64,000 nucleotides of DNA from Sipunculus nudus. Lineage: Eukaryota > Annelida > Sipuncula > Golfingiida > Sipunculidae. The stretch covers positions 35,554,901-35,618,900 of the forward strand of contig CM049317.1 of the NCBI GenBank assembly GCA_026874595.1, read 5' to 3'. Position 1 is the stretch's first letter; every line of letters begins with the position of its first letter. The position numbers and the translations under genes were made by a program. Shown in pieces: positions 4,426 to 41,900 of this stretch. The notes under the pieces are model-generated. The model was not told the origin of the DNA, did no database searches, and saw only the letters and a list, made by a program, of their open reading frames with translations.

Positions 4426-4690
4426 CGACAGGTATGGTTAACGGTTTTTGCACTATAACTTCGCCATAAATAGGCTTATCCACTTCTGCAACAGCTCATT
4501 TTTCGTCATCACCTGGCCTTTCTTTTGACATGTAGCTAACTTAAATTTGCTGTTACCATGGTTACGCAATTTTGGGGAGAAATCATGGAATTTCGTGATA
4601 TTTTTCAAATTTGCAGCAATCGTACTGATTCTGAGAAATTTTATGTAACATAAGAATATCTCGAAATTGTTTTTTCAGATTTTGGAAATG

Positions 4691-4709
4691 GCCGCCAGGG
4701 GGCGTTGCA
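4691..4709 (+). promoter_or_regulatory. CTCF-like core motif, first of eight in the array
   Basis: GCCGCCAGGGGGCGTTGC matches the CTCF core consensus as I remember it (CCASYAGRKGGC). Copies are at 4691, 6090, 7709 and 9108. The variant CCGCTAGGGGGCGCTGC is at 5149 and 8167, and CCACCAGGGGGCGTGG is at 6548 and 9566. All are on the + strand. Occupancy is not demonstrable from sequence. Confidence 0.45.
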
Positions 4710-5508
4710 GATGAAAAAACATGAAAATTTGTTTTGGTGCTATACCTCCAGAACTATTAAACATTGGGCCATTTCCATCACAGCACCTTAAACTAGGGTC
4801 CATGGGCTTATTTTTGCGCATAGGTGCCAAAGTGCGCTATTGCCAGATTTCTCTATTTTTGGGGTAAAACTTTTGAATTTTCAAAATATGCAGTTTTCAG
4901 CTTCTAACTCTGTCAGTTTTTATGCTAGAGTGGTCAAACTTTTTGCATCTTGTAGCCCTTGGTGAGTTCTCGGTGATCCAATCAAAGATCTTGCGAAATC
5001 TCGCACCGTTTCTCGTCGAATGAGATTTTCCCGATTTCACGGTGACATGCCCTATAGGCCACAGATATGCAGGCATCGTTTTGAAACTGACACATGTTAC
5101 GTCATACATTAATATCTCGAAAGTAATTTTTCAGTTTTTGAAAAATTACCGCTAGGGGGCGCTGCACTGCAACCCCGTACCTACTATCATTGTTTAATCA
5201 TATCTCCAAATATACACCGTTTAGCTACATAAACTGTACATCATATGAATCGGCATTTCATGGCCTTTCTGCCCATGGCCAATTTTGTTTAATCATACAC
5301 GGTCCCCACAAGTTTTAGCAACTTTGTAAAAAATGGAAACCCGCATGCACATATACATATGCCATCACGCATGCATGCACGCGTTTTAGTATGAATGACA
5401 GACACGCTTTCCCGTGAGTGCAAAAATTATAGCGTTCGCTGTATAAAATAAGTAACTACGGACACTCTTTGCGGGCCGGTTTGCCATTTCTGTCGCGTTA
5501 TAGTTTAT

Positions 5509-5650
5509 TGCTTGCCGGAATCAGAGATTTCGACAAGTATGTTGATCAGTCCCGTATGTTTGTTGCTTGCCGGAATCAAAGATTCGGCAAGCATGTTGAT
5601 CACTTGCGTATGTTTGTTGCTTGCCGGAAATCTTCGATTTTGGCAAGCAT
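5509..5650. repeat. short tandem hairpin units at monomer A/B junction
   Basis: Three units of about 55 bp start near 5509, 5563 and 5622, and again at 8527, 8581 and 8640. Each contains GCTTGCCGGAA..GGCAAGC-type arms. A similar pair sits at 7171 and 7241, and at 10189 and 10259. The arms GCTTGCC and GGCAAGC are exact reverse complements; the inner GAAATC/GATTTC extend the stem in the cleanest copies. Confidence 0.8.
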
Positions 5651-8600
5651 ATTGCTCAGTTGCGTATGTCTGTTTGTCTGTTTGTTTGTTTGTTTGTCTG
5701 CACTCCCCTGGCCACAATTTTGCCACAATCACCTTGAAACTTACAGGGATGATGAAAAACATAATTTCTAGGTGCCCTATTGTTTTTGGTTAAAATAGGT
5801 CAAAGGTCAAAGGTCAAGGTCACGACAGGAATGGTTAACGGTTTTTGCACTATAACTTCGCCATAAATAGGCTTATCCACTTCTGCAATAGCTCATTTTT
5901 TTCGTCATCACCTGGCCTTTCTTTTGACATGTAGCTTACTTAAATTTGCTGTTACCATGGTTACGCAATTTTGGGGAGAAATCATGGAATTTCGTGATAT
6001 TTTTCAAATTTGCAGCAATCGTACTGATTCCGAGATATTTTATGTAACACAAGAATATCTCGAAATTGTTTTTTCAGATTTTGGAAATGGCCGCCAGGGG
6101 GCGTTGCAGATGAAAAAACATGAACATTTGTTTTGGTGCTATACCTCCAGAACTATTAAACATTGGGCCATTTCCATCACAGCACCTTCAACTGGGGTCC
6201 ATGGGCTTATTTTTGCGCATAGGTGCCAAAGTGCGCTATTGCCAGATTTCTCTACTTTTGGGGTAAAACTTTTGAATTTTGAAAATATGCAGTTTTCAGC
6301 TTCTAACTCTGTCAGTTTTTATGCTGGAGAGGTCAATTTTTTTGCATCTTGTAGCCCTTGGTGAGTTCTCGGTGATCCAATCAAAAATCTTGCAAAATCT
6401 CGCACCGTTTCTCGTCAAACGAGAGTCTTCGAGATTTCATTTAATATGACCTACAGGTTGCATTTTTTTAACAATGGCTTAGAAATTGATATATTTTGTG
6501 TTATTTTATAAATATCTCGAAATCAGTTTTTCATTTTATTGAAATAGCCACCAGGGGGCGTGGTACCTGAAACACTGTAACATATCATTTTTCTGCAATA
6601 TCTCAAAAAATATTAAACGTGACACCATTTTTTTTTTTTGTGGTATCTGAAACTTGGAACATTGGCTTATTCCTCCGCACATGTAGCTTTGTACTGCCGT
6701 TACCATGGTTACCAAATTTTGGGGTAAAACGTGACCACTTGAAAATACGAAGTTTACCTGCTTCTATCTCTGTTGATATTTGCCATAGAAAGGTCTGGTT
6801 TTCGGCGTTAGACAGCATCCGTCTAGTTCTTAGTCATTCAATCGCAAGTCTCGTCATATCTCGCACCGTTTCTCGTGAAACGAGAACACGTGACCATTCA
6901 AAGAAATGCCTATAATTCTGTCATTTTTACGCCACAGACACATGGTCTGCAGCGCCGGATAGCGTCGGACACTCGCAGTCACATTCAGGGGTCGCATTGT
7001 AAGTCTCGTCAAATCTCGCGCCGTGTTTCACCAAACCACGAAGTCACGTGCCGTCGCCGCAAGTGCCGGCAGGGTCCCTACGGTGGGCGGCCGGCGTGTG
7101 CAGCGGTGCGTGACGGCCTTTCCAGGCCCTGTCTATTATCATACATGTTGGAGGCACAGTCACAACTTTATTGCTTGCCGGAAATCTTCGATTTCGGCAA
7201 GCATATTGCTCAGTTGCGTATGTCTGTTTGTCTGTTTGTTGCTTGCCGGAAATCTTCGATTTCGGCAAGCATATTGCTCAGTTGCGTATGTCTGTTTGTC
7301 TGTTTGTCTGTTTGTTTGTCTGCACTCTCCTGGCCACAATTTTGCCACAATCACCTTGAAACTTACAGGGATGATGAAAAACATAATTTCTAGGTGCCCT
7401 ATTGTTTTTGGTTAAAATAGGTCAAAGGTCAAAGGTCAAGGTCACGACAGGTATGGTTAACGGTTTTTGCACTATAACTTCGCCATAAATAGGCTTATCC
7501 ACTTTTGCAACAGCTCATTTTTCGTCATCACCTGGCCTTTCTTTTGACATGTAGCTAACTTAAATTTGCTGTTACCATGGTTACGCAATTTTGGGGAGAA
7601 ATCATGGAATTTCGTGATTTTTTCAAATTTGCAGCAATCGTACTGATTCTGAGAAATTTTATGTAACATAAGAATATCTCGAAATTGTTTTTTCAGATTT
7701 TGGAAATGGCCGCCAGGGGGCGTTGCAGATGAAAAAACATGAAAATTTGTTTTGGTGCTATACCTCCAGAACTATTAAACATTGGGCCATTTCCATCACA
7801 GCACCTTAAACTAGGGTCCATGGGCTTATTTTTGCGCATAGGTGCCAAAGTGCGCTATTGCCAGATTTCTCTATTTTTGGGGTAAAACTTTTGAATTTTC
7901 AAAATATGCAGTTTTCAGCTTCTAACTCTGTCAGTTTTTATGCTAGAGTGGTCAAACTTTTTGCATCTTGTAGCCCTTGGTGAGTTCTCGGTGATCCAAT
8001 CAAAGATCTTGCGAAATCTCGCACCGTTTCTCGTCGAATGAAATTTTCCCGATTTCACGGTGACATGCCCTATAGGCCACAGATATGCAGGCATCGTTTT
8101 GAAACTGACACATGTTACGTCATACATTAATATCTCGAAAGTAATTTTTCAGTTTTTGAAAAATTACCGCTAGGGGGCGCTGCACTGCAACCCCGTACCT
8201 ACTATCATTGTTTAATCATATCTCCAAATATACACCGTTTAGCTACATAAACTGTACATCATATGAATCGGCATTTCATGGCCTTTCTGCCCATGGCCAA
8301 TTTTGTTTAATCATACACGGTCCCCACAAGTTTTAGCAACTTTGTAAAAAATGGAAACCCGCATGCACATATACATATGCCATCACGCATGCATGCACGC
8401 GTTTTAGTATGAATGACAGACACGCTTTCCCGTGAGTGCAAAAATTATAGCGTTCGCTGTATAAAATAAGTAACTACGGACACTCTTTGCGGGCCGGTTT
8501 GCCATTTCTGTCGCGTTATAGTTTATTGCTTGCCGGAATCAGAGATTTCGACAAGTATGTTGATCAGTCCCGTATGTTTGTTGCTTGCCGGAATCAAAGA

Positions 8601-10669
8601 TTCGGCAAGCATGTTGATCACTTGCGTATGTTTGTTGCTTGCCGGAAATCTTCGATTTTGGCAAGCATATTGCTCAGTTGCGTATGTCTGTTTGTCTGTT
8701 TGTTTGTTTGTTTGTCTGCACTCCCCTGGCCACAATTTTGCCACAATCACCTTGAAACTTACAGGGATGATGAAAAACATAATTTCTAGGTGCCCTATTG
8801 TTTTTGGTTAAAATAGGTCAAAGGTCAAAGGTCAAGGTCACGACAGGAATGGTTAACGGTTTTTGCACTATAACTTCGCCATAAATAGGCTTATCCACTT
8901 CTGCAATAGCTCATTTTTTTCGTCATCACCTGGCCTTTCTTTTGACATGTAGCTTACTTAAATTTGCTGTTACCATGGTTACGCAATTTTGGGGAGAAAT
9001 CATGGAATTTCGTGATATTTTTCAAATTTGCAGCAATCGTACTGATTCCGAGATATTTTATGTAACACAAGAATATCTCGTAATTGTTTTTTCAGATTTT
9101 GGAAATGGCCGCCAGGGGGCGTTGCAGATGAAAAAACATGAACATTTGTTTTGGTGCTATACCTCCAGAACTATTAAACATTGGGCCATTTCCATCACAG
9201 CACCTTCAACTGGGGTCCATGGGCTTATTTTTGCGCATAGGTGCCAAAGTGCGCTATTGCCAGATTTCTCTACTTTTGGGGTAAAACTTTTGAATTTTGA
9301 AAATATGCAGTTTTCAGCTTCTAACTCTGTCAGTTTTTATGCTGGAGAGGTCAATTTTTTTGCATCTTGTAGCCCTTGGTGAGTTCTCGGTGATCCAATC
9401 AAAAATCTTGCAAAATCTCGCACCGTTTCTCGTCAAACGAGAGTCTTCGAGATTTCATTTAATATGACCTACAGGTTGCATTTTTTTAACAATGGCTTAG
9501 AAATTGATATATTTTGTGTTATTTTATAAATATCTCGAAATCAGTTTTTCATTTTATTGAAATAGCCACCAGGGGGCGTGGTACCTGAAACACTGTAACA
9601 TATCATTTTTCTGCAATATCTCAAAAAATATTAAACGTGACACCATTTTTTTTTTTGTGGTATCTGAAACTTGGAACATTGGCTTATTCCTCCGCACATG
9701 TAGCTTTGTACTGCCGTTACCATGGTTACCAAATTTTGGGGTAAAACGTGACCACTTGAAAATACGAAGTTTACCTGCTTCTATCTCTGTTGATATTTGC
9801 CATAGAAAGGTCTGGTTTTCGGCGTTAGACAGCATCCGTCTAGTTCTTAGTCATTCAATCGCAAGTCTCGTCATATCTCGCACCGTTTCTCGTGAAACGA
9901 GAACACGTGACCATTCAAAGAAATGCCTATAATTCTGTCATTTTTTTACGCCAAAGACACATGGTCTGCAGCGCCGGATAGCGTCGGACACTCGCAGTCA
10001 CATTCAGGGGTCGCATTTTAAGTCTCGTCAAATCTCGCGCCGTGTTTCACCAAACCACGAAGTCACGTGCCGTCGCCGCAAGTGCCGGCAGGGTCCCTAC
10101 GGTGGGCGGCCGGCGTGTGCAGCGGTGCGTGACGGCCTTTCCGGGCCCTGTCTATTATCATACATGTTGGAGGCACAGTCACAACTTTATTGCTTGCCGG
10201 AAATCTTCGATTTCGGCAAGCATATTGCTCAGTTGCGTATGTCTGTTTGTCTGTTTGTTGCTTGCCGGAAATCTTCGATTTCCGCAAGCATGTTGGTCAG
10301 TTCCGTATGTCCATTTGTCTGTTTGTTTTTTTGTTTTTTTGTTTGTTTTTTTGTGTGTTTGTCTGCGCTCTCCTGGCCACAATTTTGCAGCAATCGACAT
10401 GACCCTTACAGGGTTGATTGACAACCGAACACCCTGGAACCCTATTGTTTTTGGTCAACATTGCTCCAAGGTCAAGGGTCAAGGTCACGACAGGTGTGGT
10501 TAACGGTTTTTGCACTATAACTTCGCCATAAATAGGCTTATCCACTTCTGCAATAGCTCATTTTCTTCGTCATTACCTGGCCTTTCTTTTGATATGTAGC
10601 TTACTTAAATTTGCTGTTACCATGGTTACATTTTTTGGGCAAAAATCATGGAAATTGGAAATAAAACGA

Positions 10670-12130
10670 CCATTTTTTTGTAACTTTATCAGTTTTTAAG
10701 CTAGGCAGATCTAGTTTTCGGCATTTTGTTCCACATGACCAGCTTGACACGACAGAACTGAAAGTCACGCCAAATCTCGCGCCATATCTCGTCAAACGAG
10801 AAAAAACGAGACTTCGCGGAAATGCTTATAACTCAGCGACTTTTACAGCTAGACAGGTCTGGTTTTCGGCATTTCGTTCCACCAAACAAGCTTGACACGA
10901 CAGAGCTGCAAGACAGGCCAAATCTCGCACCGTATCTCGTCAAACGAGAAAACACGGGATGTCACGGAAATGCTTATAACTGGGCCAGTTTTACAGCTAG
11001 ACACGTCTGGTTTTCGGCATTTAGTTCCACTAGACCAGCTTGACACGACAGATATGCAAGTCTGGCAAAATCTCGCACCGTATCTCGTCAAACGAGAAAA
11101 CACGAAATTTCACGGAAATGCTTATAACTCGGCCAGTATCACAGCTAGACACGTCTGGTTTCCGGCATTGCCTTCCACATGACCAGCTTGACACGATAGA
11201 TGTGCAAGTCAGGCCAAATCTCGCACCGTATCTCGTCAAACGAGAAAACACGAAATTTCACGGAAATGCTTATAACTCGGCCAGTTTTACAGCTAGACAC
11301 GTCTGGTTTCCGGCATTTCCTTCCACATGACCAGCTTGACACGATAGATGTGCAAGTCAGGCCAAATCTCGCACCCTATCTCGTCAAACGAGAAAACACG
11401 AGATTTCACGGAAATGCTTATAACTCGGCGAGGTTTACAGCTAGACAGGTCTAGTTTTCGGCATTTTCTTTCACATGACCTGCTGGACATGACAGAACTG
11501 AAAGTCAGGCCGAATGTCGCACCGTATCTCGTCAAACGAGAAAACATGAGATTTCACGGCATTGGTTATAACTCGGCGAGTTTTACAGATAGACACGTCT
11601 GGTTTTCGGCATGTTGTTCCACTAGACCAGCTTGACACGACAGACATGCATGTCAGGCAAAATCTCGCACAGTATCCCGTCAAACGAGAAAACACGACAT
11701 TTCATGGAACTGCAGCTAGACAGGTCTAGTTTTCGGCATTTAGTTCCACATGACCCGCTTGACATGACAGAACTCCAAGTCAGGCACAATCTTGCACCGT
11801 ATCTCGTCAAACGAGAAAAAACACGAGATTTCACCGAAATGCTTTTAACTCGGCGATTTTTACAGGTACGAAGGTCTAGTTTTCGGCATTGTGTCACATA
11901 TGAACTGCTTGATTAGATAAAGCCATAAGTCTGCCCAAATCTCGCACCATATTTTGTGCAACGTGAACAAACGAGATGTCACTGAAATGCTTATAACTCG
12001 GCGCCTTTTACAACAAAGTAGTTCTAGTTTTCGGCATTTTGTCACATATGACCAGCTTGACATGACAAACCTGAAAACGTCTCACTGCTTCTTGTCAAAC
12101 GAGATTAACGGGATTTCATGAAAAAATTTT
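10670..12130. repeat. ~148-bp minisatellite, about ten copies
   Basis: The unit contains ATGCTTATAACTCGGC, TTTTACAGCTAGACA, GGTTTTCGGCAT, CATGACCAGCTTGACACGA and the palindrome TCTCGTCAAACGAGA. The palindrome recurs near 10785, 10935, 11083, 11231, 11379, 11528, 11677, 11803, 11950 and 12090, giving periods of 148-150 bp with a few shortened units. Overlapping short frames on both strands are translations of the repeat. Related fragments at 6392, 6865 and 7017 inside monomer B suggest that the minisatellite and the 3-kb unit share ancestry. Confidence 0.92.
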
Positions 12131-19876: not shown

Positions 19877-20102
19877 TATTTGATGTGCCGAAGGACCCAC
19901 CACTACCAAAATTTTCTGAAGTGTGGAAGCTAGTCTGCGGTCCAACCAGTCCCACATTATATGGGACCAATTTATCAGCGAGTCTGCAAACTATTATTAT
20001 GTGAGATACCCCGGTATAGGAAGCAGCGGCGAATACACACAAATCGGGAAGAAGATGCTGAACGGCTATCCCCATATTGAACGTGAAGGACACTACCCAT
20101 GG
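19877..20102 (+). pseudogene. gene 1 exon 1 detected (YP..EYTQIGKKML block)
   Basis: VPKDPPLPKFSEVW in one frame is followed, after a one-base shift near 19926, by SNQSHIIWDQFISESANYYY and YPGIGSSGEYTQIGKKML. The exon ends TGG|GTAAAT in phase 0. The acceptor is uncertain (AG near 19876). Upstream exons were not found. Confidence 0.6.
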
Positions 20103-20419: not shown

Positions 20420-20775
20420 AGCCTGTTCACCCACAATATGAGCCAGAGGATCAGGCATATGCGATGGGCGTTGAAGAGGAAGAGCACACCTAGCTCCACC
20501 AATGGAAGTGTCTCCTCTCCACCTGCCAAGAAGATGGCAGAGGCAGCGGCTGTACCTCAAGGCCAGCATCCTCAGGAAACGCTGCCTCAAGACGATTACA
20601 ACCAGCATGTCCAACAGATCAAGTCAGAATGGGCAAAACCAAGCGAAAAGCGGAATATTTCACACGTAAAGATGTTGCTAAAGGAAATGTTTGTCAACAC
20701 ACAAGCTTGGATCAAGTCCCTTCCTGATGGCAAGATAGCGCCGATACTGCAGAGGATCAGTTGCTATGAGGATGG
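20420..20775 (+). pseudogene. gene 1 exon 2, 5' part (interrupted)
   Basis: The acceptor ATTTAACAG is at 20419. It encodes a basic start (MSQRIRHMRWALKRKS), a Ser/Pro linker, then DDYNQHVQQIKSEWAKPSEK and KMLLKEMFVNTQAWIKSLPD. This follows the family pattern HV..L..E..K..HV..LM..TF...WI. The frame runs straight into the LTR at 20776. The remaining 7 nt before the donor lie beyond the far LTR. Confidence 0.75.
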
Positions 20776-20954
20776 TGTAGTATATCAGTACCGTTGTCGG
20801 TACCCGGATTTGTGTTTTCAACAATTGTCTGTATGCCATGACTATGCGCATGTGCGCTCTTACCGGAAGTAACTTCCGTCTGCCATCTTAATAAACAGGC
20901 TAAGCAGTCACGTTGGTTACCTTGTTCCTAATCAGGACATTAAAGATATAAAAG
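20776..20954 (+). repeat. 5' LTR
   Basis: 179 bp, identical to 26656-26834 except at 20897. It contains an AATAAA at about 20890 and ends ATATAAAAG. It begins TG, but the end is not the canonical CA. Confidence 0.95.
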
Positions 20955-20970
20955 TGGCGACGAGTCGTGG
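20955..20970 (+). other. putative primer-binding site
   Basis: TGGCGACGAGTCGTGG lies immediately after the 5' LTR and begins with the TGG expected opposite a tRNA CCA end. TGGCGAC starts occur in elements primed by tRNA-Arg in insects, so an Arg tRNA is a guess. Confidence 0.55.
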
Positions 20971-21023
20971 ATAAATAGTTAATCAATCGGTTAACGCAAC
21001 AGACAGTGACACCACGCGCTAGT

Positions 21024-23794
21024 ATGGCTTTCCTAGGAACGGTTGGAGAATACTCCCAAGGCCACGAAAGCTGGGAAACGTATATTGAAAGGTATGAACA
21101 GTTCATTCTTGCTAACGGCATTAGTGATGCAAAGAAAGTTCCCGTTTTGCTGTCAGTCATAGGATCAAAGACTTATAATTTGCTAAGAAGCTTAACAAGC
21201 CCAGATAAGCCAGCCACGAAGTCATATGCTCAAATTATAGAGATACTGGGGAATCATTTCACGCCTGAACCGATTGTCATTGCGGAACGATACCAATTTT
21301 ATAAATGCAACCAGGCTACTGATCAGCCCGTGAATAGGGGTCAGACTAATCACCCAATCGGACCCAATCGTACCCCATCGGACCCAATCGTACCCCATCG
21401 GACCCAATCGGACCATGTTAAATGCAAATAACCCTTAATGAATCATATTTTCTCTTCAGATTATTACAAAAAAGGTCTAATTTAATGTTTCAATCATGTT
21501 TTTTTACAACAAAAATACTATCTGTTACTTTTATTTTATATTGTGATAAGGTAGCCCCTAATATTTCTGTTGCAAATGTTAAATTGGAAAATAATATAAA
21601 TTTTAATCCCGTTCCATACATGCACAAATTTATACCCACCAAAATAGAATGAAAAACTTAACCAAGCAGACCCAATCGGACCATGGAATATAAACATATC
21701 CCTTAAAAAATATTTTCACAAGAGGAAAACTGTATTGAGATGTTCAACCTTTCTTACAAATCTATAAAATACAAATTTCAGTCTCATTACAAACACAAAG
21801 ACATACACACACATATTCTGGCTGGTCTTATTTCACAGGGCTCCCTGTACTTCAAAAACTATTACTCCAATGTTTAGCTTATAAACTTGACCAGTGTATC
21901 TTGCCGATTGCCTCACCTGCATATACTTTGGTCATACTTGGGTGATATTTCTGATAATTATACATACACATATAAGTATTGTACTAGTACACAGTTGTAT
22001 CCAGTAGAAAAAAGACCCAATTATAACAAATATACAAATTCATATGACAGAAAAAAAAAACAAATAGTGGCACAAGATGTGAAAATGTGGAATATGCCTA
22101 TCAGTCCCCATCCGACAAATGGGACTTGAATATATAAATTTTAGATACCCTGTTTACTTATATATCATCTTATCCCTTTAGATTAATGTACAAATTGGTT
22201 TAATTTCAGATGTCACTTTTTTATCATGAATGAAATTATTTTGATATTTAATTTTATACATGATGGTTATTCCTATGGTTGTATTATGATTGTAGTTTGC
22301 CCCCTACCCCCGCCTGTCCCCCCCCCCCCCCGCCCGGTTTTAAATTTGTCAGAATGGATGTAACATCTCAATATACCACTTTCATTGAGAAAAAATAAAT
22401 TTTAGTTTCTTTTGTGAAAAATATTTTATAAAGGAATATCTTTATATTCAAAGGTTTGATTGGATCTGCTTAGTTCATTTTTTTTTGTGCATGTTTGAAA
22501 TGGGATTAGAATTTATATTATTATCCAATTTAACATTTGCAACAGAAATATTAGGGGCTACCTTATCACAATATAAAATAAAAGTAACAGATCGTATTTT
22601 TGTTGTAAAAAACCTAATAGAAACATTAAATTAGACATTTTTTTTGTAATTATCTGAAGAGAAAATATGATTCATTGAGGGTTATTTGTATTTAACATGG
22701 TCCGATTGGGTTCGATGGGGTCCGATTTGGTCCGATGGGGTACGATTGGGTCCGATGGGGTACGATTGGGTCCGATTGGGTGATTAGTCTGACCCCGTGA
22801 ATAGCTATGTGGCTCAGCTGCGTCAGCTGACGGAACACTGTAAGTTCGGTGCTTTCTTAAATGATGCACTTGGGGATAAATTTGTGTTAGGACTTCAGAG
22901 TGAGGCCATACAGAAACGGTTATTAACCGAGAAAGACTTAACTTTTGATAAGGCCTCGAGGTCGCTGTGGCAATGGAAGTTGCAGCACGTGATAGTAAAG
23001 AGCTCAGTCAGCAGCAGAATTCTGCTCTTGATGTACATAAGCTTGGTGCACATAAACCACACAATAGAAATAGGTGCTGGAGATGCACAAGGTCAAACCA
23101 TGGGCCAGATGATTGTTTTTATAAATCAGCAAAGTGCCGTGCTTGTGGGTTAATTGGACATATTCAAGCTTCAAAGTCATGTAAAGGACAGGTTACTGGC
23201 AGTAAGAAATTTCATGGTGCTAAAAAGATGACTAAAAAGAAACAGCCTGATGGTTCAGTGAAAAGTGTCGCAGAGTTAAGTCCGTCAACATCAGAGAGTG
23301 ATGATAATAGTCTCTGTTTAAAAGCTATCAAGAGTAAACAAAAAAAGTGTCCACCAATAATGATTCCTGTAACCGTGGAAAACAAACCAGTAAATATGGA
23401 ATTAGATACAGGCTCCACAGTGTCTATTATCTCCAAACAGTTGTACCAGGACTTGTTTCCAGATTTAAAACTGAGCAAGACTAGTGTTTCATTGAAAACA
23501 TACACAGGGGAAGCTATCTTCCCAGTAGGAGTCCTGAGTGTTTCTGTTGAGTACAACAGACAGATCTATGACAATATGGAACTTTATGTGGTTGATCAGG
23601 ATTCGACGCCCTTGTTCGGCCGTGCATGGCTAACCTGTATCCAGCTGGATTGGCAATCAGTCAAGTTACTAAGAGAGAGCAGCAAACTAGACACAGTATT
23701 AAATGCTCACAAACAGCTATTTAAGAAAGAACTTGGTGAAATTAAAGAATGCAGGGCACACATTACTTTAGGATTCTGTACCCAAATTCTGTAA
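21024..23794 (+). pseudogene. gag and protease of the Ty3/gypsy element, interrupted
   Basis: The gag ATG is at 21024 (MAFLGTVGEYSQGHESWETY). The frame runs to 21337, is broken by the nested transposon, and resumes at 22796 with NSYVAQLRQLTEHCKFGAFL. Removing the insert and one 9-bp repeat joins the two without a frame change. A one-base shift near 22955 leads into the nucleocapsid: CX2CX4HX4C at CWRCTRSNHGPDDC and a second Cys/His box, CRACGLIGHI. The aspartic protease follows with MELDTGSTVSII (Asp codon 23405). A second one-base shift near 23775 precedes the pol frame. Gag packages RNA; the protease matures the polyprotein. Confidence 0.88.
21338..22795. mobile_element. nested DNA transposon with ~340-bp TIRs, 9-bp TSD (MULE-like?)
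   Basis: The ends are GGGTCAGACTAATCACCCAA and its reverse complement. Inverted similarity extends about 340 bp on each side (to about 21680 and from about 22452). Subterminal GGTCCGATTGG/GGTACGATGGG words are repeated several times. CGTGAATAG flanks both sides (21329-21337, 22796-22804). Long TIRs and a 9-bp duplication fit Mutator-like elements; hAT or P (8 bp) are alternatives if the boundary is read differently. The interior has a C-run at about 22318-22332 and no convincing transposase, so it is non-autonomous. Confidence 0.9.
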
Positions 23795-23849
23795 GCCGCG
23801 TCCAGTAGCATACTCACTACGTGAAAAAGTAGAATCAGAACTTGACCGC

Positions 23850-26510
23850 TTGCAGAGAGATGGAATTATCTCACCTGTAGCTACTAGTGAGTGGGCCACA
23901 CCCATAGTCCCAGTGGTCAAGAGGTCCGGTGATATACGTATATGTGGTGATTTTAAGGTCACGGTTAACCAGGCACTTAATGTTGACCAGTACCCTTTGC
24001 CAAAGGTTGAGGACATATTTGCCGGATTGGCAGGTGGTAATGCCTTTTCAAAGCTTGATCTAGCGCACGCGTATCAACAGATGGTGGTCGACGAAGACAG
24101 TCGAAAATATCTTTGTATTAACACTCATAAGGGATTATTTGTATATAATCGCCTTGCGTTTGGAATCGCGTCGGCACCAGCCATTTTCCAAAAGACTATG
24201 GAACAGATAGTACAAGGATTACCTGGTGTCCAGGTATATCTAGATGATATACTCGTCACAGGTGTAAATGAAGATGAACATTTAGTGAATCTTGACAAAC
24301 TGTTGACAAGACTGGAACAATTTGGATTGCGTATTAGACGTGATAAATGTGAATTCTTCCAGCCATCAGTTACCTATTTGGGTTACAAGATTGATGCTCA
24401 AGGGTTGCATGCGACCTCCGATAAAGTTCAAGCAATCCTTGATACCGAACCGCCAAAGTCAGTTGAGGAACTTCGCTCATTTCTAGGGCTACTTAACTAT
24501 TATGGCAAATTCCTCCCAATGTTGTCTTCAGTGTTACAGCCGCTAAACTCTCTACTCAGCCCAAAAGTGAAATGGAATTGGTCTGAGGAATGTGACAGCG
24601 CTTTTGAAGAAGCCAAACAGCTGATGACATCAAATCGTGTTTTGACACACTACGACCTTCACTTACCACTTACACTAGCTTGTGATGCGTCAAGTTACGG
24701 TGTAGGGGCCGTCATCTCTCATGTGTTGCCAGATGGTAAGGAAAAACCTATTGCATTTGCTTCAAAGACACTCAATAAAGCTCAGCGTAACTATTCGCAA
24801 ATAGAGAAAGAAGCCCTCGCAATTGTGTTCGGTGTGCGCAAGTTCTACCAATATCTCTATGGTCGTCGATTCACCCTGATAACAGACCATCGTCCATTAA
24901 CATCTATATTTGGTCCTAAGAAGGCTGTGCCACCCATGGCAGCAGCACGTTTACAGAGATGGGCCTTGTTTTTATCAGGTTTCCAGTATGACATTGTCTA
25001 TAAGAATACACATCTCCATGGAAACGCCGATGGATTGTCACGCTTGCCTTTGCGTCATATCCAGAGTAAAGATGGCAGTGATGCTGTTGATGTATATCTG
25101 CTTACTCAGATAAATCACAGTTTACCAGTCAACACGCAACAGATTCGGCAAGCAACTAGCAAACACCCTGTACTCGCCAGAGTACGTGACATGATAATGA
25201 ACGGGTGGTCAAACGAATTCAAACAAGACAGTCAGTTTTCTCCATTTTATACCAGACAAGATGAGTTATCTGTACTGCAGGGATGCATATTGCGGGGAGT
25301 CCGTGTTGTGATACCTCCCAAACTGAGAGAAAATGTGCTAAATGAGTTACATGAGGGTCACCTCGGCATCGTAAAAATGAAAGGACTTGCCAGGAGCTTT
25401 GTATGGTGGCCGTCTTTAGATACCGACATTGAACAAATGACCAAGAGCTGTCAAAGTTGCAAGACAACTCAACATATGCCGCCATTATCGCCATTACATC
25501 CGTGGATTTGGCCATCTAGGCCATGGCAGCGCGTCCACATGGACTTTGCGGGGCCATTTCAAGGACACATGTATCTTGTCCTTGTCGACGCACACTCAAA
25601 ATGGCCAGAAGTTATCATTATGGATAACACTACTAGTGCTAATACAATTAATGTGCTAAGACAAGTGTTCAGCAGAACAGGCTTGCCAGAACAGCTTGTA
25701 TCAGACAACGGGCCTCAGTTTTGTTCAGCAGAGTTTAAACAGTTTTCTCTGTCCAATGGCATAAAACATGTTTTCTCAGCTCCGTATCATCCATCTACAA
25801 ATGGACTCGCAGAGCGGTTCATCCAGACCATGAAACAAGCTCTACGTGCTTCTCGATCACAGAACACACAAACAAGCTTAGATCGATTCCTCTTGGCCTA
25901 TCGAAATTCCCCTCATACCACAACCAAGGAGAGTCCTGCTATGCTGTTTATGTGTCGACCGCTCAGATCCTGTCTTGATCTGATAAAACCTGATTTAGCT
26001 GCAGATGTTGCAGATCGCCAGGTCAAACAACGATTGTCCACGGGTCCATCTTCGTTACGCCAGTTTGACCTTGGTGACACAGTCCTTGTGCGGAATTACC
26101 GGGGAGGAGATAAGTGGGTCCCTGGTACTGTTAAATCAAGGTCAGGACCTGTGTCATATTCAGTAGAGTTGCGCGATGGACCTGTTGTAAGAAGACACAT
26201 TGAACAGATTGTGTCTGATCATCAACCCAGAGTGTTCGCACATGGTTCTAGCACGTCATGCAAGGACCATGCACCAACGGTTGTCTCCGCTGAGAATGTC
26301 AGTGTTAGTATGTTCGGAGAACCTCTACCGGATGCTACAGAACATTCCAGTGATAATTCAGATATTGATGTACATGTTCAGATTAATGCAACACCTAGTG
26401 GTGATAGTAATAATTCTGATGATACTGAAGTTCAAAGTTCTCATGTTGAATCTCCAAAGCGTAGGTACCCGCTAAGAGACCGAAAACCGCGTAAAATTGT
26501 GGACATGTAA
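23850..26510 (+). CDS. pol: Ty3/gypsy pol: reverse transcriptase, RNase H, integrase
   Basis: Uninterrupted 886-codon frame. RT: VKRSGDIRICGDFKVTVNQ, then SKLDLAHAYQQM (first Asp) and YLDD at residues 130-133. RNase H: ACDASSYGVGAVIS (Asp 279) with RNYSQIEKEALAIV. Integrase: zinc-binding HEGHLG (His 501 and 504) with KSCQSC, and catalytic D565 (HMDFAGPF), D619 (SDNGPQF) and E655 (LAERF). The last two are 35 residues apart, giving DD35E. A C-terminal region with GDTVLVRNYRGGDKWVPGTV follows, and the end is rich in Ser/Asp. The frame is open upstream, so pol was probably made as a gag-pol fusion; the upstream frameshifts would block that here. Confidence 0.95.
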   Translation: MQRDGIISPVATSEWATPIVPVVKRSGDIRICGDFKVTVNQALNVDQYPLPKVEDIFAGLAGGNAFSKLDLAHAYQQMVVDEDSRKYLCINTHKGLFVYNRLAFGIASAPAIFQKTMEQIVQGLPGVQVYLDDILVTGVNEDEHLVNLDKLLTRLEQFGLRIRRDKCEFFQPSVTYLGYKIDAQGLHATSDKVQAILDTEPPKSVEELRSFLGLLNYYGKFLPMLSSVLQPLNSLLSPKVKWNWSEECDSAFEEAKQLMTSNRVLTHYDLHLPLTLACDASSYGVGAVISHVLPDGKEKPIAFASKTLNKAQRNYSQIEKEALAIVFGVRKFYQYLYGRRFTLITDHRPLTSIFGPKKAVPPMAAARLQRWALFLSGFQYDIVYKNTHLHGNADGLSRLPLRHIQSKDGSDAVDVYLLTQINHSLPVNTQQIRQATSKHPVLARVRDMIMNGWSNEFKQDSQFSPFYTRQDELSVLQGCILRGVRVVIPPKLRENVLNELHEGHLGIVKMKGLARSFVWWPSLDTDIEQMTKSCQSCKTTQHMPPLSPLHPWIWPSRPWQRVHMDFAGPFQGHMYLVLVDAHSKWPEVIIMDNTTSANTINVLRQVFSRTGLPEQLVSDNGPQFCSAEFKQFSLSNGIKHVFSAPYHPSTNGLAERFIQTMKQALRASRSQNTQTSLDRFLLAYRNSPHTTTKESPAMLFMCRPLRSCLDLIKPDLAADVADRQVKQRLSTGPSSLRQFDLGDTVLVRNYRGGDKWVPGTVKSRSGPVSYSVELRDGPVVRRHIEQIVSDHQPRVFAHGSSTSCKDHAPTVVSAENVSVSMFGEPLPDATEHSSDNSDIDVHVQINATPSGDSNNSDDTEVQSSHVESPKRRYPLRDRKPRKIVDM

Positions 26511-26655
26511 TTTGGTTAAGTTTTGAGTATTTGATTTGGGTAGTTCATTGTTCAACTTGTATTCTTTCTGATTACTGGAATATCAAAGACACTGCTCCTG
26601 CGCTAAACAGACTCATTGGTACTTGTTTTTGTTTACATAATTAAGCCCGGAGGGG

Positions 26656-26834
26656 TGTAGTATATCAGTACCGTTGTCGGTACCCGGATTTGTGTTTTCA
26701 ACAATTGTCTGTATGCCATGACTATGCGCATGTGCGCTCTTACCGGAAGTAACTTCCGTCTGCCATCTTAATAAACGGGCTAAGCAGTCACGTTGGTTAC
26801 CTTGTTCCTAATCAGGACATTAAAGATATAAAAG
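26656..26834 (+). repeat. 3' LTR
   Basis: Matches 20776-20954 with one difference (G at 26777). It is preceded by the polypurine-like GGAGGGG and followed by the target duplication and the remaining 7 nt of the gene 1 exon. Confidence 0.95.
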
Positions 26835-26838
26835 ATGG

Positions 26839-26845
26839 CACAATG
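26839..26845 (+). pseudogene. gene 1 exon 2, last 7 nt and splice donor
   Basis: After the second target duplication the sequence CACAATG|GTAAGA restores two codons (Thr, Met) and a strong donor. This tiny remnant shows that the retrotransposon landed 7-8 bp upstream of an exon end. Confidence 0.7.
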
Positions 26846-27160: not shown

Positions 27161-27268
27161 ATCGTTCATGACTTCAAACAGGTTTTGGGTGAGCCGTTCT
27201 CTGAACTAGAGAAAATTCTCAGGAGAGTCACACAGGCAGTGGAGGATCTGATGGGGAGCAAACAGGAG
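27161..27268 (+). pseudogene. gene 1 exon 3
   Basis: The acceptor is TTTCCTGTAG and the donor CAGGAG|GTACTT. Thirty-six codons read HDFKQVLGEPFSELEKILRR and end AVEDLMGSKQE. Open throughout, phase 0/0. Confidence 0.7.
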
Positions 27269-27602
27269 GTACTTCAATTCATTATCCTTTTAATTCATAA
27301 TCAGAGAAATCCTTATCATTGAAAGGTATTTAATTTGTTGAATAATGGTGTGTTAAATTATTAACTTACCTAATTAGTGAATTTAAAGTGTTTAAATATG
27401 CTAAATATATATGTGTTAAATAATTATTAAATGATGTAATATGTAAATAACATTCTTTGGAATGTGATTGCTAGTTTTACTTTTATACTAAAAGTGTGAC
27501 CTGCTCTGCTGTTTTATTAGGTTTTGAGAAATGAGATACCACTGCCTTCATGTTCAGATTTCTTCAGAATATTCAAAATGCAATGTATTTTTTTTAATAA
27601 AG

Positions 27603-28210: not shown

Positions 28211-28582
28211 GACATTCCAGATGATCAAGTTGTTCGGATATCCAGGAAACAAGTGAGCAAACACCACCTCACATCCATGTGTTCGTCAGAGACGGGGAAA
28301 TCGTCGGGACATTTGTTGTTGGAGATGGCATTAAGATAATGTTCCGGCGTAAGAGTTTTGCGGCATCTTTGATAGTGCTTGTTGGCGCATATTATGTTTT
28401 TAATTTGGCCGGAGTACCCAAGAGTGTATTCACAGTTGCTGGGGTTGCTTCAAACCCGTGTGATCAGAAATATACCTTATGCAGGCGTCAAGGCACAGAA
28501 AGAGACATTTTCTGTACAGTTGAAGAAGAAACTGGAATTAGAGGCTGGGAAAACCACAGAACCCCTTTCACCCTTAGAATGA
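28211..28582 (+). pseudogene. gene 1 exon 5, C-terminal (YYVFN block)
   Basis: The acceptor is CTGTCCACAG. The text reads TFQMIKLFGYPGNK, then after a shift HVFVRDGEIVGTFVVGDGIK and KSFAASLIVLVGAYYVFNL. After a second shift it reads EYPRVYSQLLGLLQTRVI and ends at a stop at 28580-28582. The order matches the family's C-terminus (FVV.DG, AYYVFNLEYP, TLEFLQ). An AATAAA at 28658 could serve for polyadenylation. Confidence 0.7.
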
Positions 28583-34211: not shown

Positions 34212-35079
34212 TCCAACTCCTATCAACGTCAAACACTTAGGTGATCTTTTACCACAGTTCTCATACCCTGATCACTTGCTAGATTGATTAGTCAAAAGCT
34301 TTTCTGAAGGGTTTGATATTGGGTTCCAGGGCGAGCTTTTGTTTAAAACTTCTGATAACCATGCTTCTGCTAGGAACAGGCCAGATATAGTGACTGCTAA
34401 GATCGAAAAGGAATTATTTCTTAATCGAATTGCAGGGCCATTCAGTTCTCCTCCCTTAGGTGTAGTTCCCAAAAAGCAGCCCAACCAGTTCAGGCTGATA
34501 CATAATTTATCCTACCCAGAGTCTGATTCGGTAAATTCAAGCATCCCCAGAGATTTGGCTACTGTTCATTATGCTTCTTTTGACAACGCTATCAAATTGC
34601 TTTTACCTTTAGGACCATCAGCTTTCTTAGCAAAATCTGATATTGAATCGGCATTCCATCTTCTCCTAATATCCCCGTCAAATTACCCACTACTAGGATT
34701 TACATGGAACGGTTCTTACTACTACGATAAGTGTTTACCAATGGGCTGTGCCTCCTCATGTCAGTTGTTCGAATCTTTTAGCTCTGCAGTCGAGTTTTTA
34801 CTCACAAAATTTGTTCAGGCCGGGTATGTAATGCATGTTCTGGATGATTTTCTTTTTATTGGAAGCTCATATGCTGAATGTGAACATTTGCTCAAATCAT
34901 TCATACAACTGTGCGATATGCTAGGTATCCCCCTTGCTCAGGACAAAACTGAAGGTCCACAACAGTGCATCACTTTTCTAGGCATTGAGATTGACGTGCA
35001 GTCTAGGACTGCACGATTACCTGATGATAAAGTGTGTAAGGCACGGCAGCTCCTACAATCATTTCTACTGAGAGATTAA
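34212..35079 (+). pseudogene. YR element 2 reverse transcriptase
   Basis: The frame opens around 34212 (TPINVKHLGDLLPQFSYPDH), has a TGA at about 34285, and continues open from 34339. RT motifs: GPFSSPPLGVVPKKQPNQFR, LIHNLSYP, AKSDIESAFHLL (Asp of motif A), LPMGCASSCQLFESFSSAVE and HVLDDFLFIG (catalytic DD). The HVLDDF form and NLSYP block are typical of DIRS/Ngaro-group RTs as I know them. A frameshift at the end of the frame leads into the RNase H part. Confidence 0.85.
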
Positions 35080-35764
35080 AGGTCACTTTGTTAGAACTTC
35101 AGTCCCTCATAGGGTTCTTGAATTTCACATGCACAGTGGTGCAGCCAGGTATATAGGGCCTTTCTTAGACGGCTAATGGACAAAACTCGTGGTTTAAAGC
35201 GGCCACACCACCATACTAGACTCACCCATGAGGTCAAAAAGGATATAGAGCTCTGGTTAACCTTCCTAAATGATTTTAATGGTAAAGCTTTTTTGCTGTA
35301 TGACCATTGGTCGTCATTTTTTGCCCTCCATTTGTTCACAGATGCTGCTAAAGGATTTGGCTTTGGGGCAATGTTTGGAAAAAGATGGTCAATGGCCAGT
35401 GGCCCAAGTCATGGAATAATTACAGCATAGTTACACTGCAGCTTTTTCCAATTGTACTAGCTTTAGAAATGTTGGGCCCCTGCTAGCCAACAATAGATTG
35501 ATACTGATGTCAGATAACCAGGCATTAGTCTTTGTTCTTAATAAGCAGCCAACTCCCGAACCTAAAACCATGTCCTTGATGAAAAGGTTCGTCCTTGCAA
35601 CAATAAAATTCAACATTATTTGTAAAGCAGAACACACCCCAGGAAACAGTAATAGAGCAGTTTGTTCACTCTCTCATTTACAGGTCGAAAGGTTTCACAT
35701 CCTTCACCCGGGAGCGAACATTCATCCCACAAAAACCCCAGTGCTTCCGCAAACTCTGAGCTGA
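35080..35764 (+). pseudogene. YR element 2 RNase H region, frameshifted
   Basis: Pieces: TLLELQSLIGFLNFTCTVVQ, RLMDKTRGLKRPHHHTRLT, HLFTDAAKGFGFGAMFGKRW (first RNase H Asp), LMSDNQALVFVLNKQ (second Asp) and AEHTPGNSNRAVCSLSHLQ (where active copies usually have N..AD..SR). The reading changes frame at least twice. Confidence 0.75.
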
Positions 35765-35769
35765 TCCGG

Positions 35770-36674
35770 GTAGGACAACATTTAATTACCAAAAGCTTGT
35801 CTGTTAATTCCACCCGCACATACCAGAGGGCCTGGGCTCAACTAACGCAGTTCTGCTCCCAACAACATCACCCAGAATGGGCTGATATTCCTGTTTCTAC
35901 TTACACTGTATTCCTATTCTTATCAAGCCGTTCGCTGCTGGCTGCTCTGGCAGCACATTAGCTTCTTTATCATCTGCGATTTCTTTCGCCCATAAAATCA
36001 CCAATAAACGTGATCCAACATTATCAGAGGCCATTAAGAAACTCATTGCTGGGGCTCGGAAACTAAGTCCCTCTGTTGACATGCGCTTGCCGATCACAAA
36101 ACCTCTGCTGCACCAGCTTGTTGCTGCTCTCCCTTTCACAATAGGTTCCTATTACCAACAAAAAATGTTCAGAGCCATGTATTTAATTTGCTTCTATGGT
36201 TTCTTCAGGATAGGGGAATTAATACCTAAATCAAAAATGACTCACACTCAAGTAGTACAGCTAGCAGACATTAGTCTCCCCTCTCAGCTCTTTCCCCACT
36301 TAAATACAAGGTTAAGACACTCAAAAAGTGCACCCTCCGGTTCATGGCAGTCTGTTACAGTAACATCTAAAGCTCCACAGCCCTGTCCTGTCCAGGCTCT
36401 GCGTGATTTTGTTCATGAAAGAGGCTCCTCCCCGGGTCCTGGCTTTTCTTCCCCTTCTGGTATACCTCTTTCCCATAAGCAGTTTTCTGATCAGCTGACA
36501 AGGGACCTTACCTTTTGCAATCTAGACATAACTAGATTTAAAGGCCACAGTTTTCGCATAGGAGCCGCAACTGAAGCGGCAGCTCAGGGCAAAAGTGATG
36601 CTGAAATAAGAACCTTAGGTAGCTGGCGATCAAATGCCTTTCAGAAATACATCCGTATGCACCACCTTCATTAA
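35770..36674 (+). pseudogene. YR element 2 tyrosine recombinase
   Basis: The N-terminal SAM-like part reads LSVNSTRTYQRAWAQLTQFC. After a one-base shift near 35950 the catalytic domain is open: FYGFFRIGELIP (first Arg), GHSFRIGAATEAAAQGKSD (HxxR) and LGSWRSNAFQKYIRMH (W and the nucleophile Tyr). All R..HxxR..Y residues are present, unlike the element 1 copy. It would integrate a circular cDNA by recombination. Stop at 36672-36674. One repair would make it intact, so this is the best preserved protein of the element. Confidence 0.88.
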
Positions 36675-38923: not shown

Positions 38924-41900
38924 GTAAGGACATACCGACTTACTGTTATCCATTAAATTTTAAAAGCCAAATAAATTCATGAATGTATATGATTTATGAT
39001 GCAGGGATAAAGCTAAGATTTTCCAGGCATGGTCACTTTGTTTAATTAGCTCTGTATTTCAGAAATGATGTGTATGGTACTGTAATACGCTTTCATTTAG
39101 ATTATCAAGTAATGTACTCAGATAGATGGGTAATTTATCTACCTATCAGTTTTACCTGCATCCATTGGATGTTTTACTAACTTTATCAATTAGAGGTCTT
39201 GCAATATTTGGCTTTAGTGATAATATTACATTTTTGAAAAACCTGCTGTATTAATAGGCTTCTTGAATATTAGCTGAGCTTCAACACAAACTTCATTTGT
39301 TCTAGCTGAAACTGAAAATGAAACAGCAGAGGGAACTGCTTGTGCCTCCATAGAACCATCTAACCCAAGCCCTAGCACTTCATCCACTTCTGGCTGCTCC
39401 TCTCCAGCAAAGTAAGATTCACAGTTTGATTTGTTGATCATTCATTGCTTATATCTCCAAAATTTAGCTTAAAATCCTCACACAAATTGTTAAGACTACT
39501 TAAAGCAGCAATTTTTTTAATGCATTTATTTTTTGCAAATGACATGTGCGTATTTTGCTTGTAAACTAATACTTGTTTTTAAAATTACAAGGTCTTTATC
39601 AAGCACACTTAAAATGAAAACCTTAAAATACTTTCTTTAGGCCATTTCTGAAAAAATCATATAAGGCTATGTCTGAAAATTTCACAGTTTTCAGTATCGT
39701 AAAGACTACATTGATTGAAGCTAACAGCCTAATGGTTATAATCAGTGAGATAATAAACTAAATTTTTTTACAAGCAAGTAAAAGTTATGTTGAGCAAATA
39801 AAAATTTAGCTCGTAAATTGCACCACGTTAAAATTAATGTTTAACCTTGTAACATGTGTAATGGATGATTATGTATGGTTTGATTTAGTCAAGTTGCCAC
39901 AGTGCCCCTGAAACCTTGGAAGAAGCCTTATCTGTTTCCAGTCAAGAACCTGCCACAGAATCTTCAGGACCACCTGAGAGAAAAAAAAGGCTCTGGACTC
40001 TACCCAAAGAAAGATTTTTCTCTCAGTCCTGTATGAGGATGTCACCAAGTTCACTTTGTATGTATCATTTGAAGTCTGATTTTGTCTCATGATAATGGAC
40101 TGATTATTATCCCCTGCCTCAGTGAAGTGGGGGTTATAGTGATCAGCTCCATCAATCTGCCTGTCCCTATGTCCATCAGTATGTCTGTAAACAATTGTTA
40201 ATTGACACAATATCTAAAAAAAATCTTACAGCTACTTCTTATTGTAGTTGAAGGTGCATCTTATAGTTTTTCCAGTGCTGATTAGATTTTGTAGTTTTTA
40301 GTTATCTTCTGTTTCTGTTCATTGTCAGTCTGTGGCAGTGCAGGAAAGGTATGAAACATGATTTGGTTAAGAATAGAAAATTTATTTCCAGATATTGAGA
40401 GTATAATAGTCATTCTCTGTGAAAGAGGTTGATAATGCCTAGATTCTGCTGATCAGATGAGTGACATGATACATAGGTCACTAATTTTGTCGGGAGTTAA
40501 TGAAATATTAATGTTTTCAGCACAAAGGTTAATGAAACAAATCTTAACAAAAGCCCTACAGTGTTCAAAGTTTTTTTTTATTTTGTAGCTACCCTGTACC
40601 AGATCAGTATACAGACATCATTCGAGGAATCATCATGAAGTGGCCACACTTGGCCAGTGTAGCTAATATGGAGGGCATAGACACAATTGTAAGTTGTATA
40701 ATTCTTACTTTTATTTCTTGACAGATTATTCCAAATGGTGTATATGAAGCCCATATTGTGTGTGTGTGTGGTGGTGGTTGTTGGGGGGGGGGACTTGGAA
40801 AATGGGACCTTCTGTATATTATTCATGGTAATATCTTTACTTAGATTTCCATTATTATTTGACAGGGTATGTCATTTAAATTGTGAAGCCTTTGTGTGCA
40901 GTCAGGAAAGGTGAACAAGTAACATAATAAACATGTTAGCCCCCCCCCCCCCCCCTTAGCGGCAATGTATCACTGAGGTGATTTAAACAACCAACACTAC
41001 CATAATGACAATAACAATGCATTCTTTGATGCTATTGACTGGGTGTGACACTATGTTGTATACTGTATTTCAGAACTACTGGAGGACTAAGATAAGGGAA
41101 AAATTCTGCAATGCCAGGAAAAGGAGGGACAGGCTTCAGCCACTAGTCAAGGCGAGAGTTCTGGGTAAGAGGAAGAAGAAGGGAGAAGCAACAGCTGCAG
41201 GGCCACCATGCAAGAAAGCCAAAGCTTGGTATGGTGTGCCCTATTATCTCCCTGAGAGGCCTCCAGGAGAGGATGCCAGCACCATCAGGGTTCACATTGA
41301 GTGGATGAAAGAGGAGAAGAGGGTTCATCCAAGGAGGCCAGACTTTGCAAAAATAAAGACTTGTATGGCAAGGACTCTAGCTGATCGCCGAGAGATGGTG
41401 GTCCTGCAGGCAGCATCCATAGAAACCATAATGGAGACATTTCCATGGCTTTGGGATGAAGATGAGGTAAATTCTTTGAATTCTTTACTGTATTTTTTTT
41501 AATTTAATAAAATAATTATAACCCAGGGTTTTTTTTTGTGCAGTGGTGAATTAAAGGAGGCTCTCTGAAACTATATTTTCTCAGAGTATTATTAATGTAT
41601 ATAATCATGAACTCCAGAATAGTGTATTCTATGTTCATTAAACATTAAAGCCTGCTGCAAGTTAGAGATATCAGATGTTCATGATTGTTGGTATATTACA
41701 TGAAGAAAATTTATGTGTTTAAAAATTTGGTTCATTTATACAAACAGCTGGCTGATGAATATCAGAGGCTTACAGGCAAGGATTTATCCAATCAAGTGGA
41801 CGAATTTTCCCAAAAATATTGGAAAGCTATCATCCAAATGGGTCAGAGGATTGACGAGAAGAAAAAGCATCCCCTCATCAAGGGCTTTGTTGAACATATG

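What the first reader, a model, noticed from the sequence alone, without database searches (positions are those of the whole stretch)
20420..26845. Retrotransposon inserted in an exon; removing it restores a 121-codon exon
The exon begins at 20420, meets the 5' LTR at 20776, and its last 7 nt plus a GTAAG donor reappear after the 3' LTR. Excision with one GATGG copy gives 363 nt in phase 0/0, with VQQIKSEWAKPSEK-type family text throughout. The LTRs differ at 1 of 179 positions, so the insertion is young and may be polymorphic. LTR-derived splice or polyadenylation signals could still let a shortened mRNA be made.
Basis: partly seen in the sequence, partly recalled or inferred. Interest (0 to 1): 0.75.

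Follow-up and report, generated by a model that had tools for sequence, protein, structure and literature searches.

The report
Young jumping gene inside dying gene
A recently inserted retrotransposon, which itself carries a second small transposon, splits one exon of a duplicated animal gene; a nearby copy still shows the site before the insertion, but both gene copies are broken in other ways too, so this is a well documented but ordinary event.

Summary
A Ty3/gypsy-type element fills window 20776-26833. Its 178-nt LTRs differ at one base (20897); GATGG is duplicated at 20771-20775 and 26834-26838. All six family insertions readable at both ends have perfect 5-bp duplications. The exon is 20420-20775 plus 26839-26845 (363 nt, phase 0/0); three homologues support its start, five of six its end. 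A 96% identical copy of this stretch, 68.7 kb upstream on the same contig, lacks the element: a natural pre-insertion site.

Three things change the picture. (1) Only about 1.48 kb is shared. The window copy has a 1-nt frameshift in its preceding exon; the empty copy has 2-nt and 7-nt deletions. Neither is intact, so removing the element would not restore a gene. (2) A 1.46-kb inverted-repeat transposon sits inside the element's gag, and its frame is further broken. (3) The family moved recently: three other two-LTR copies match the window's 3' LTR completely at both ends. Polymorphism and RNA effects cannot be tested here; a stop then AATAAA in the LTR make truncated mRNA plausible. Ordinary; interest low.

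The parts
19885..20102 (+). Preceding host exon (VEASLRSN...GHYPW), homologous to copy A from 19885 only; carries a 1-nt deletion near 19922 relative to copy A and to the C10 homologue
   Evidence: donor TGG|GTAAAT, as TGG|GTAAGA in C10
20420..20775 (+). Host exon, 5' 356 nt, starts phase 0 (SLFTHNMSQRIRHMRW...)
20771..20775 (+). Target-site duplication, left copy (GATGG)
20776..20953 (+). 5' LTR, 178 nt, AATAAA at 20890; read-through of the host frame ends at stop 20870-20872
20955..20966 (+). Putative primer-binding site (TGGCGACGAGTC), one base after the LTR; tRNA not identified
   Evidence: inference
21024..21336 (+). gag, first part (weak DUF7083 match, below curated cut-off), cut by the nested element
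21330..21336 (+). 7-nt target-site duplication of the nested element, left copy (GTGAATA)
21337..22796 (.). Nested transposon with about 290-nt terminal inverted repeats and 10-nt tandem repeats at its tips; no ORF of 120 codons or more lies wholly inside it; dispersed family
22797..22803 (+). 7-nt target-site duplication of the nested element, right copy
22797..23153 (+). gag, second part (no Pfam match)
22952..23794 (+). Aspartic protease region with a sub-threshold zinc knuckle, in another frame than gag and pol in this copy
23772..26510 (+). pol: reverse transcriptase, RNase H, integrase (H2C2 and core)
26656..26833 (+). 3' LTR, 178 nt, one difference from the 5' LTR
26834..26838 (+). Target-site duplication, right copy (GATGG)
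26839..26845 (+). Last 7 nt of the host exon, followed by donor GTAAG
27161..27268 (+). Next host exon (IVHDFKQVLGEPFSELEK...)
27521..27577 (+). Probable further host exon (VLRNEIPLPSCSDFFRIFK); no second copy found
28225..28530 (+). Probable C-terminal host exon (HIHVFVRDGEIVG...YYVFNLAG); no close second copy found

Best explanation
A low-copy, recently active Ty3/gypsy-type LTR retrotransposon integrated, in the sense direction, into an exon of one of two partly duplicated copies of a host gene. The insertion made a 5-bp GATGG duplication close to the exon's 3' end, leaving 7 exon bases beyond it (shown). A non-autonomous inverted-repeat transposon landed in the element's gag (shown), most likely afterwards (inferred: the three sister copies C5, C16 and C14 have an LTR spacing too short to hold it). 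In this genome the exon is split. Transcripts reading into it would run 32 codons further, meet a stop in the LTR, and could be cleaved at the LTR's AATAAA (inferred, no RNA). The gene copy carries another frameshift and the paralogue is broken as well, so the insertion is most likely one lesion in a decaying gene pair rather than the sole cause of loss; the order of the lesions is unknown.
For: LTRs, TSD and exon boundaries. Pre-insertion state in copy A at C12:35506117-35507595, with GACGG at the target and no element. Sister copies: LTR spacing 4419 nt on C5 and C16 and 4421 on C14, against 5880 here; copies on C5, C16 and C13 with both LTRs fully matching the window's 3' LTR; a 1-kb pol piece 99% identical in four sister copies. 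RT/RNase H closest to Ty3 among solved structures, E 3e-63. Nested element with 7-nt TSD and a dispersed family. Host lesions: copy B 1-nt deletion; copy A 2-nt and 7-nt deletions. Stop at 20870-20872 and AATAAA at 20890.
Against: No RNA, population or sister-species data. The B frameshift could be an assembly error, and the role of the preceding exon is inferred from homology only. pN/pS between A and B is 0.28 over 188 codons, which hints that at least one copy was under selection for part of the time since duplication, so the insertion could have hit a still-working gene. Against that hint, exons as a whole (23 of 681 sites) are not less diverged than introns (20 of 797), and the synonymous divergence (0.082) lies well above the intron value (0.025), so the ratio rests on few sites.
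Confidence: 0.85

Rival explanations
1. The insertion was the event that killed (or is polymorphic in) an otherwise working gene; the frameshift in the preceding exon came later or is an assembly error.
For: The exon frame is otherwise open for 121 codons; the downstream exons that were found are open in copy B; pN/pS 0.28; very young LTRs.
Against: Preceding exon frameshifted in B relative to A and to the C10 homologue, and homology to A stops at 19885 near a highly repeated sequence; A is independently broken, which suggests that the gene is dispensable.
Confidence: 0.25
2. Copies A and B are the two haplotypes of one locus wrongly placed in tandem by the assembler, so the empty copy is an allele.
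For: 2.9% divergence is within the heterozygosity recalled for marine invertebrates (no call; that the host is one was not established).
Against: Homology covers only about 1.48 kb and ends abruptly on both sides within the 80 kb upstream of the window and the window itself; no copy of B's later exons was found near A and the upstream flanks differ.
Confidence: 0.05
3. The element is removed from RNA as an intron-like unit, using the GT formed by the last TSD base and the LTR's first T and the AG formed by the LTR's last A and the TSD's first G; this would leave the frame open with one extra Asp.
For: The GT-AG pair exists and the join is 366 nt, in frame, ending ...CYEDDGTM. A full-length ONSEN insertion in an exon spliced out in Arabidopsis is described (PMC12112155, passages).
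Against: Donor score is only at the 82nd percentile of GTs in the window and acceptor at the 9th percentile of AGs, with no pyrimidine tract (generic consensus frequencies recalled); each LTR, inside the would-be intron, holds an AATAAA.
Confidence: 0.03

Closest known systems
Ty3/gypsy LTR retrotransposons (Ty3 RT/RNase H, PDB 4ol8; Ty3 Gag-Pol 7q5b)
   Same: PR-RT-RNase H-integrase order, short LTRs, constant 5-bp target duplications, single long gag-pol frame in some sister copies
   Different: Lineage not placed by a tree; the copy in the window is not intact
Steamer and Steamer-like elements of bivalves (PMC8905726 section 9, first of two parts read; PMC11046912 and PMC10663159 passages)
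   Same: LTR length (178 vs 177 bp in Mya), 5-bp target duplication, element length about 4.6 kb (4,543-4,968 there), single frame of 1,356 codons in some sister copies (1,376 in a Mytilus element), low copy number
   Different: LTR starts TGTAGTA, not TGTAACA; ends ATATAAAA, not (T/A)TAAACA; PBS TGGCGACGAGTC, not TGGTGTCAGAAG; 0 of 6 insertion sites show either half of the CATN...NATG flanks reported for Steamer
Exonic LTR-retrotransposon insertions that change termination or are spliced out (ONSEN in Arabidopsis, PMC12112155, passages)
   Same: Full-length LTR element in an exon with possible LTR-encoded termination
   Different: There RNA was sequenced; here nothing is known of RNA, and the gene copy has another lesion

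Membership tests
Ty3/gypsy LTR retrotransposon | Direct LTRs flanked by a short constant-length target duplication | tested here: met
   178-nt LTRs; 5-bp TSD in 6 of 6 insertions readable at both ends (five pairs and one solo LTR); a seventh fetched locus (C8) has one LTR next to internal sequence and was not counted; the other 14 of 26 LTR matches were not tested
Ty3/gypsy LTR retrotransposon | Domain order protease - RT - RNase H - integrase | tested here: met
   Pfam order in ORFs 22952-23794 and 23772-26510
Ty3/gypsy LTR retrotransposon | RT closest to Ty3-group RT | tested here: met
   Best of 14 matching PDB sequences are Ty3, E 3e-63 and 9e-63; no tree was built
Steamer family | LTR begins TGTAACA and ends (T/A)TAAACA | tested here: not met
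   TGTAGTA ... ATATAAAA against PMC8905726 section 9
Steamer family | PBS TGGTGTCAGAAG directly after the 5' LTR | tested here: not met
   GTGGCGACGAGTCG follows
Steamer family | RT/RNase H falls in the Steamer branch of the C-clade | not tested
   No tree was built
SAMD3-like host gene family (name recalled, from no call) | Recognised domain or curated model match | tested here: inconclusive
   The exon has no Pfam match above cut-off, only CPSF73-100_C at E 0.17, below cut-off; the other host exons were not scanned

The most novel reading that the evidence does not exclude
The element's ends and its GATGG duplication happen to make a GT-AG pair, so the whole retrotransposon could be spliced out as a newborn intron, leaving one extra aspartate and an open exon; alternatively the LTR supplies a stop and poly(A) site and a stable truncated chimeric protein is made.
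Probability: 0.04. Interest if true: 0.5.

Novelty: new member of a known kind. Interest (0 to 1): 0.2.

Why it matters
It is a clean case of a young LTR insertion in a coding exon, with a natural empty site in a nearby paralogue and a nested DNA transposon, useful for relative dating or as a presence/absence marker. Biologically it is an ordinary gene-disruption event in a gene pair that is decaying anyway.

Tried and rejected
Steamer membership: suggested by LTR length and TSD, rejected on LTR ends and PBS. False haplotype duplication: rejected because homology is limited to about 1.48 kb. Finding the missing flanks of A in B and the reverse: local alignment scores were at shuffled level (32 against a shuffled maximum of 30; 30 against 32). 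Viral contigs for the host exon: 12 stretches matched a pattern, none confirmed. Organism: two paper searches gave no answer; the one paper listed, the Tridacna gigas note (search listing only), reports 1,175.9 Mb against 1,426.5 Mb here, and the chromosome number that I searched for was a guess from contig numbers. The bacterial-type promoter scan of the 3' LTR is not informative for an animal genome. An exon-wide divergence test and pN/pS point in different directions and are both reported. In one search the preceding exon was taken one base too long (to 20103), which does not change the count of differences. The Poisson comparison over five LTR pairs assumed two differences in all; the C14 pair was not read base by base, so only the comparison for the window's own pair is used here.

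Full report
What was checked. Direct repeats found are LTRs at 20776 and 26656. Comparison with other genomic copies fixes the LTR at 178 nt, because copies whose 3' flank does not begin with G match only to position 178. Each of the six insertions readable at both ends has a perfect 5-bp duplication: GATGG here, GAAAT, ATCTC, TTTAT, AAAAC, and CAAAT around a solo LTR. One search listed 26 LTR-like stretches; 11 of them make up these six insertions, one further locus (C8) was fetched but has one LTR only, and the other 14 were not tested. The two window LTRs differ once, at 20897.

The exon. Frame 0 from 20420 is open up to the insertion, and with one GATGG plus CACAATG it is 363 nt. Homologues set both ends. 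The C10 homologue has a phase-0 acceptor at the same Ser codon and the same donor position on its preceding exon (GHNEW|GTAAGA against GHYPW|GTAAAT here). L004 and L006 begin at the same place (my reading). Donors lie three codons past the equivalent position in L004, L006, L007, L008 and the window's own relative at 40987; L005, the sixth looked at, is degenerate there.

The empty site. A copy 68.7 kb upstream on the same contig (C12:35506117-35507595) aligns on both sides of the insertion without the element and has GACGG at the target. It is the only other match found for the flanking intron and next exon in the genome (2 matches, the window included). The shared block is 1.48 kb, with 43 substitutions in 1478 sites plus indels. 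Neither flank continues in the other copy within the sequence examined, so this is a partial segmental duplication rather than a haplotype placed twice.

State of the gene. Copy B (window) has a 1-nt deletion in the preceding exon relative to copy A and to the C10 homologue, which aligns to A there without a gap, and its homology to A begins only at 19885, some 40-60 nt beyond where matches to a highly repeated sequence end. Copy A has a 2-nt deletion in the preceding exon and a 7-nt deletion in this exon. Later exons that copy B keeps (27521 and 28225) were not found near A. Both copies are thus broken independently of the element. Whether B was already broken when the element arrived is unknown. 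Exons are no less diverged than introns (23 of 681 against 20 of 797 sites), but pN/pS is 0.28 over 188 codons (9.5 synonymous and 10.5 nonsynonymous differences; pS 0.082, pN 0.023), which hints at past constraint; as pS lies well above the intron value, the hint rests on few sites.

The element. Pfam finds protease, RT, RNase H, integrase zinc finger and core in Ty3/gypsy order, and the closest solved RTs are Ty3's. In this copy gag is interrupted at 21337-22796 by a transposon with about 290-nt inverted arms, flanked by GTGAATA. It belongs to a family with at least ten matches over all or most of the 1,286-nt query, the window copy included, and many partial ones (40 of 96 candidates scored). 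The LTR spacing is 5880 here, 4419 on C5 and C16 and 4421 on C14. The excess over 4419 is 1461 against 1467 for insert plus duplication, so a few other small length changes exist. The protease stretch also lies in a different frame from gag and pol, while sister copies with an uninterrupted 1,356-codon frame exist. This copy therefore cannot make the normal polyprotein.

Age. One LTR difference in 178 gives about 0.3% per lineage. If the pair were as old as the A/B duplication, 5.2 differences would be expected, with P of one or fewer 0.035. Sister copies on C5, C16 and C13 have both LTRs fully matching the window's 3' LTR, and the C14 copy has one LTR at 100% and one at 99%. A 1-kb pol piece is 99% identical in the four sister copies C16, C14, C5 and C13. 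The family moved recently; an absolute age needs a mutation rate that was not available, and polymorphism cannot be judged from one assembly.

Consequences. Element and gene are in the same orientation. The host frame runs 32 codons past the last whole exon codon, the first of them straddling the LTR boundary, to a stop at 20870-20872, and AATAAA follows at 20890. Truncated LTR-terminated mRNA is plausible but unseen. The element's edges also make a GT-AG pair whose removal would leave an open exon with one extra Asp, but the acceptor scores at the 9th percentile of AGs in the window (consensus frequencies recalled). Splicing-out of a full-length exonic LTR element has been reported for ONSEN (PMC12112155, passages read).

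Comparison. LTR length and TSD recall Steamer (PMC8905726 section 9, first of two parts; PMC10663159 passages), but LTR ends, PBS and insertion-site flanks differ, so it is not filed there. It is an unnamed Ty3/gypsy family of low copy number. The exon has no Pfam match above cut-off; the resemblance of the gene to SAMD3-like proteins is recalled only.

Verdict. Real, well supported by a natural empty site, and ordinary: a young insertion in one of two decaying gene copies.

Noticed in passing
window 21337-22796: Foldback-like transposon with 10/20-nt tandem repeats at both tips and a 7-nt target duplication, nested in gag; at least ten matches over all or most of the query genome-wide including this one.
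   Followed up: partly
window 40987-41466, with weak C-terminal matches at 46805 (E 0.51) and 47974 (E 0.066): A second member of the same host gene family downstream of the disrupted one, with the same exon-end pattern (WLWDEDE|GTAAAT).
   Followed up: partly
window 27215-27235: All six substitutions in the next exon between copies A and B are packed in 21 nt and mostly change amino acids; a conversion tract or mutation cluster is possible.
   Followed up: no
window 34288-36674: Open frames, one with a weak tyrosine-recombinase match (PF00589, E 0.029, below cut-off) and one that reads like a reverse transcriptase (my reading, not scanned): possibly a DIRS-like element (name recalled).
   Followed up: no
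window 5503-7400 and 8521-10420: Near-identical blocks about 3.0 kb apart with the same internal repeats and open frames, followed by a 148-nt satellite at 10690-11713, to 12067 in longer periods.
   Followed up: no
G000:C13:70158219-70170699: A sister retrotransposon copy with LTRs 12,303 nt apart, so about 7.9 kb of extra sequence inside, yet both LTRs match fully.
   Followed up: no
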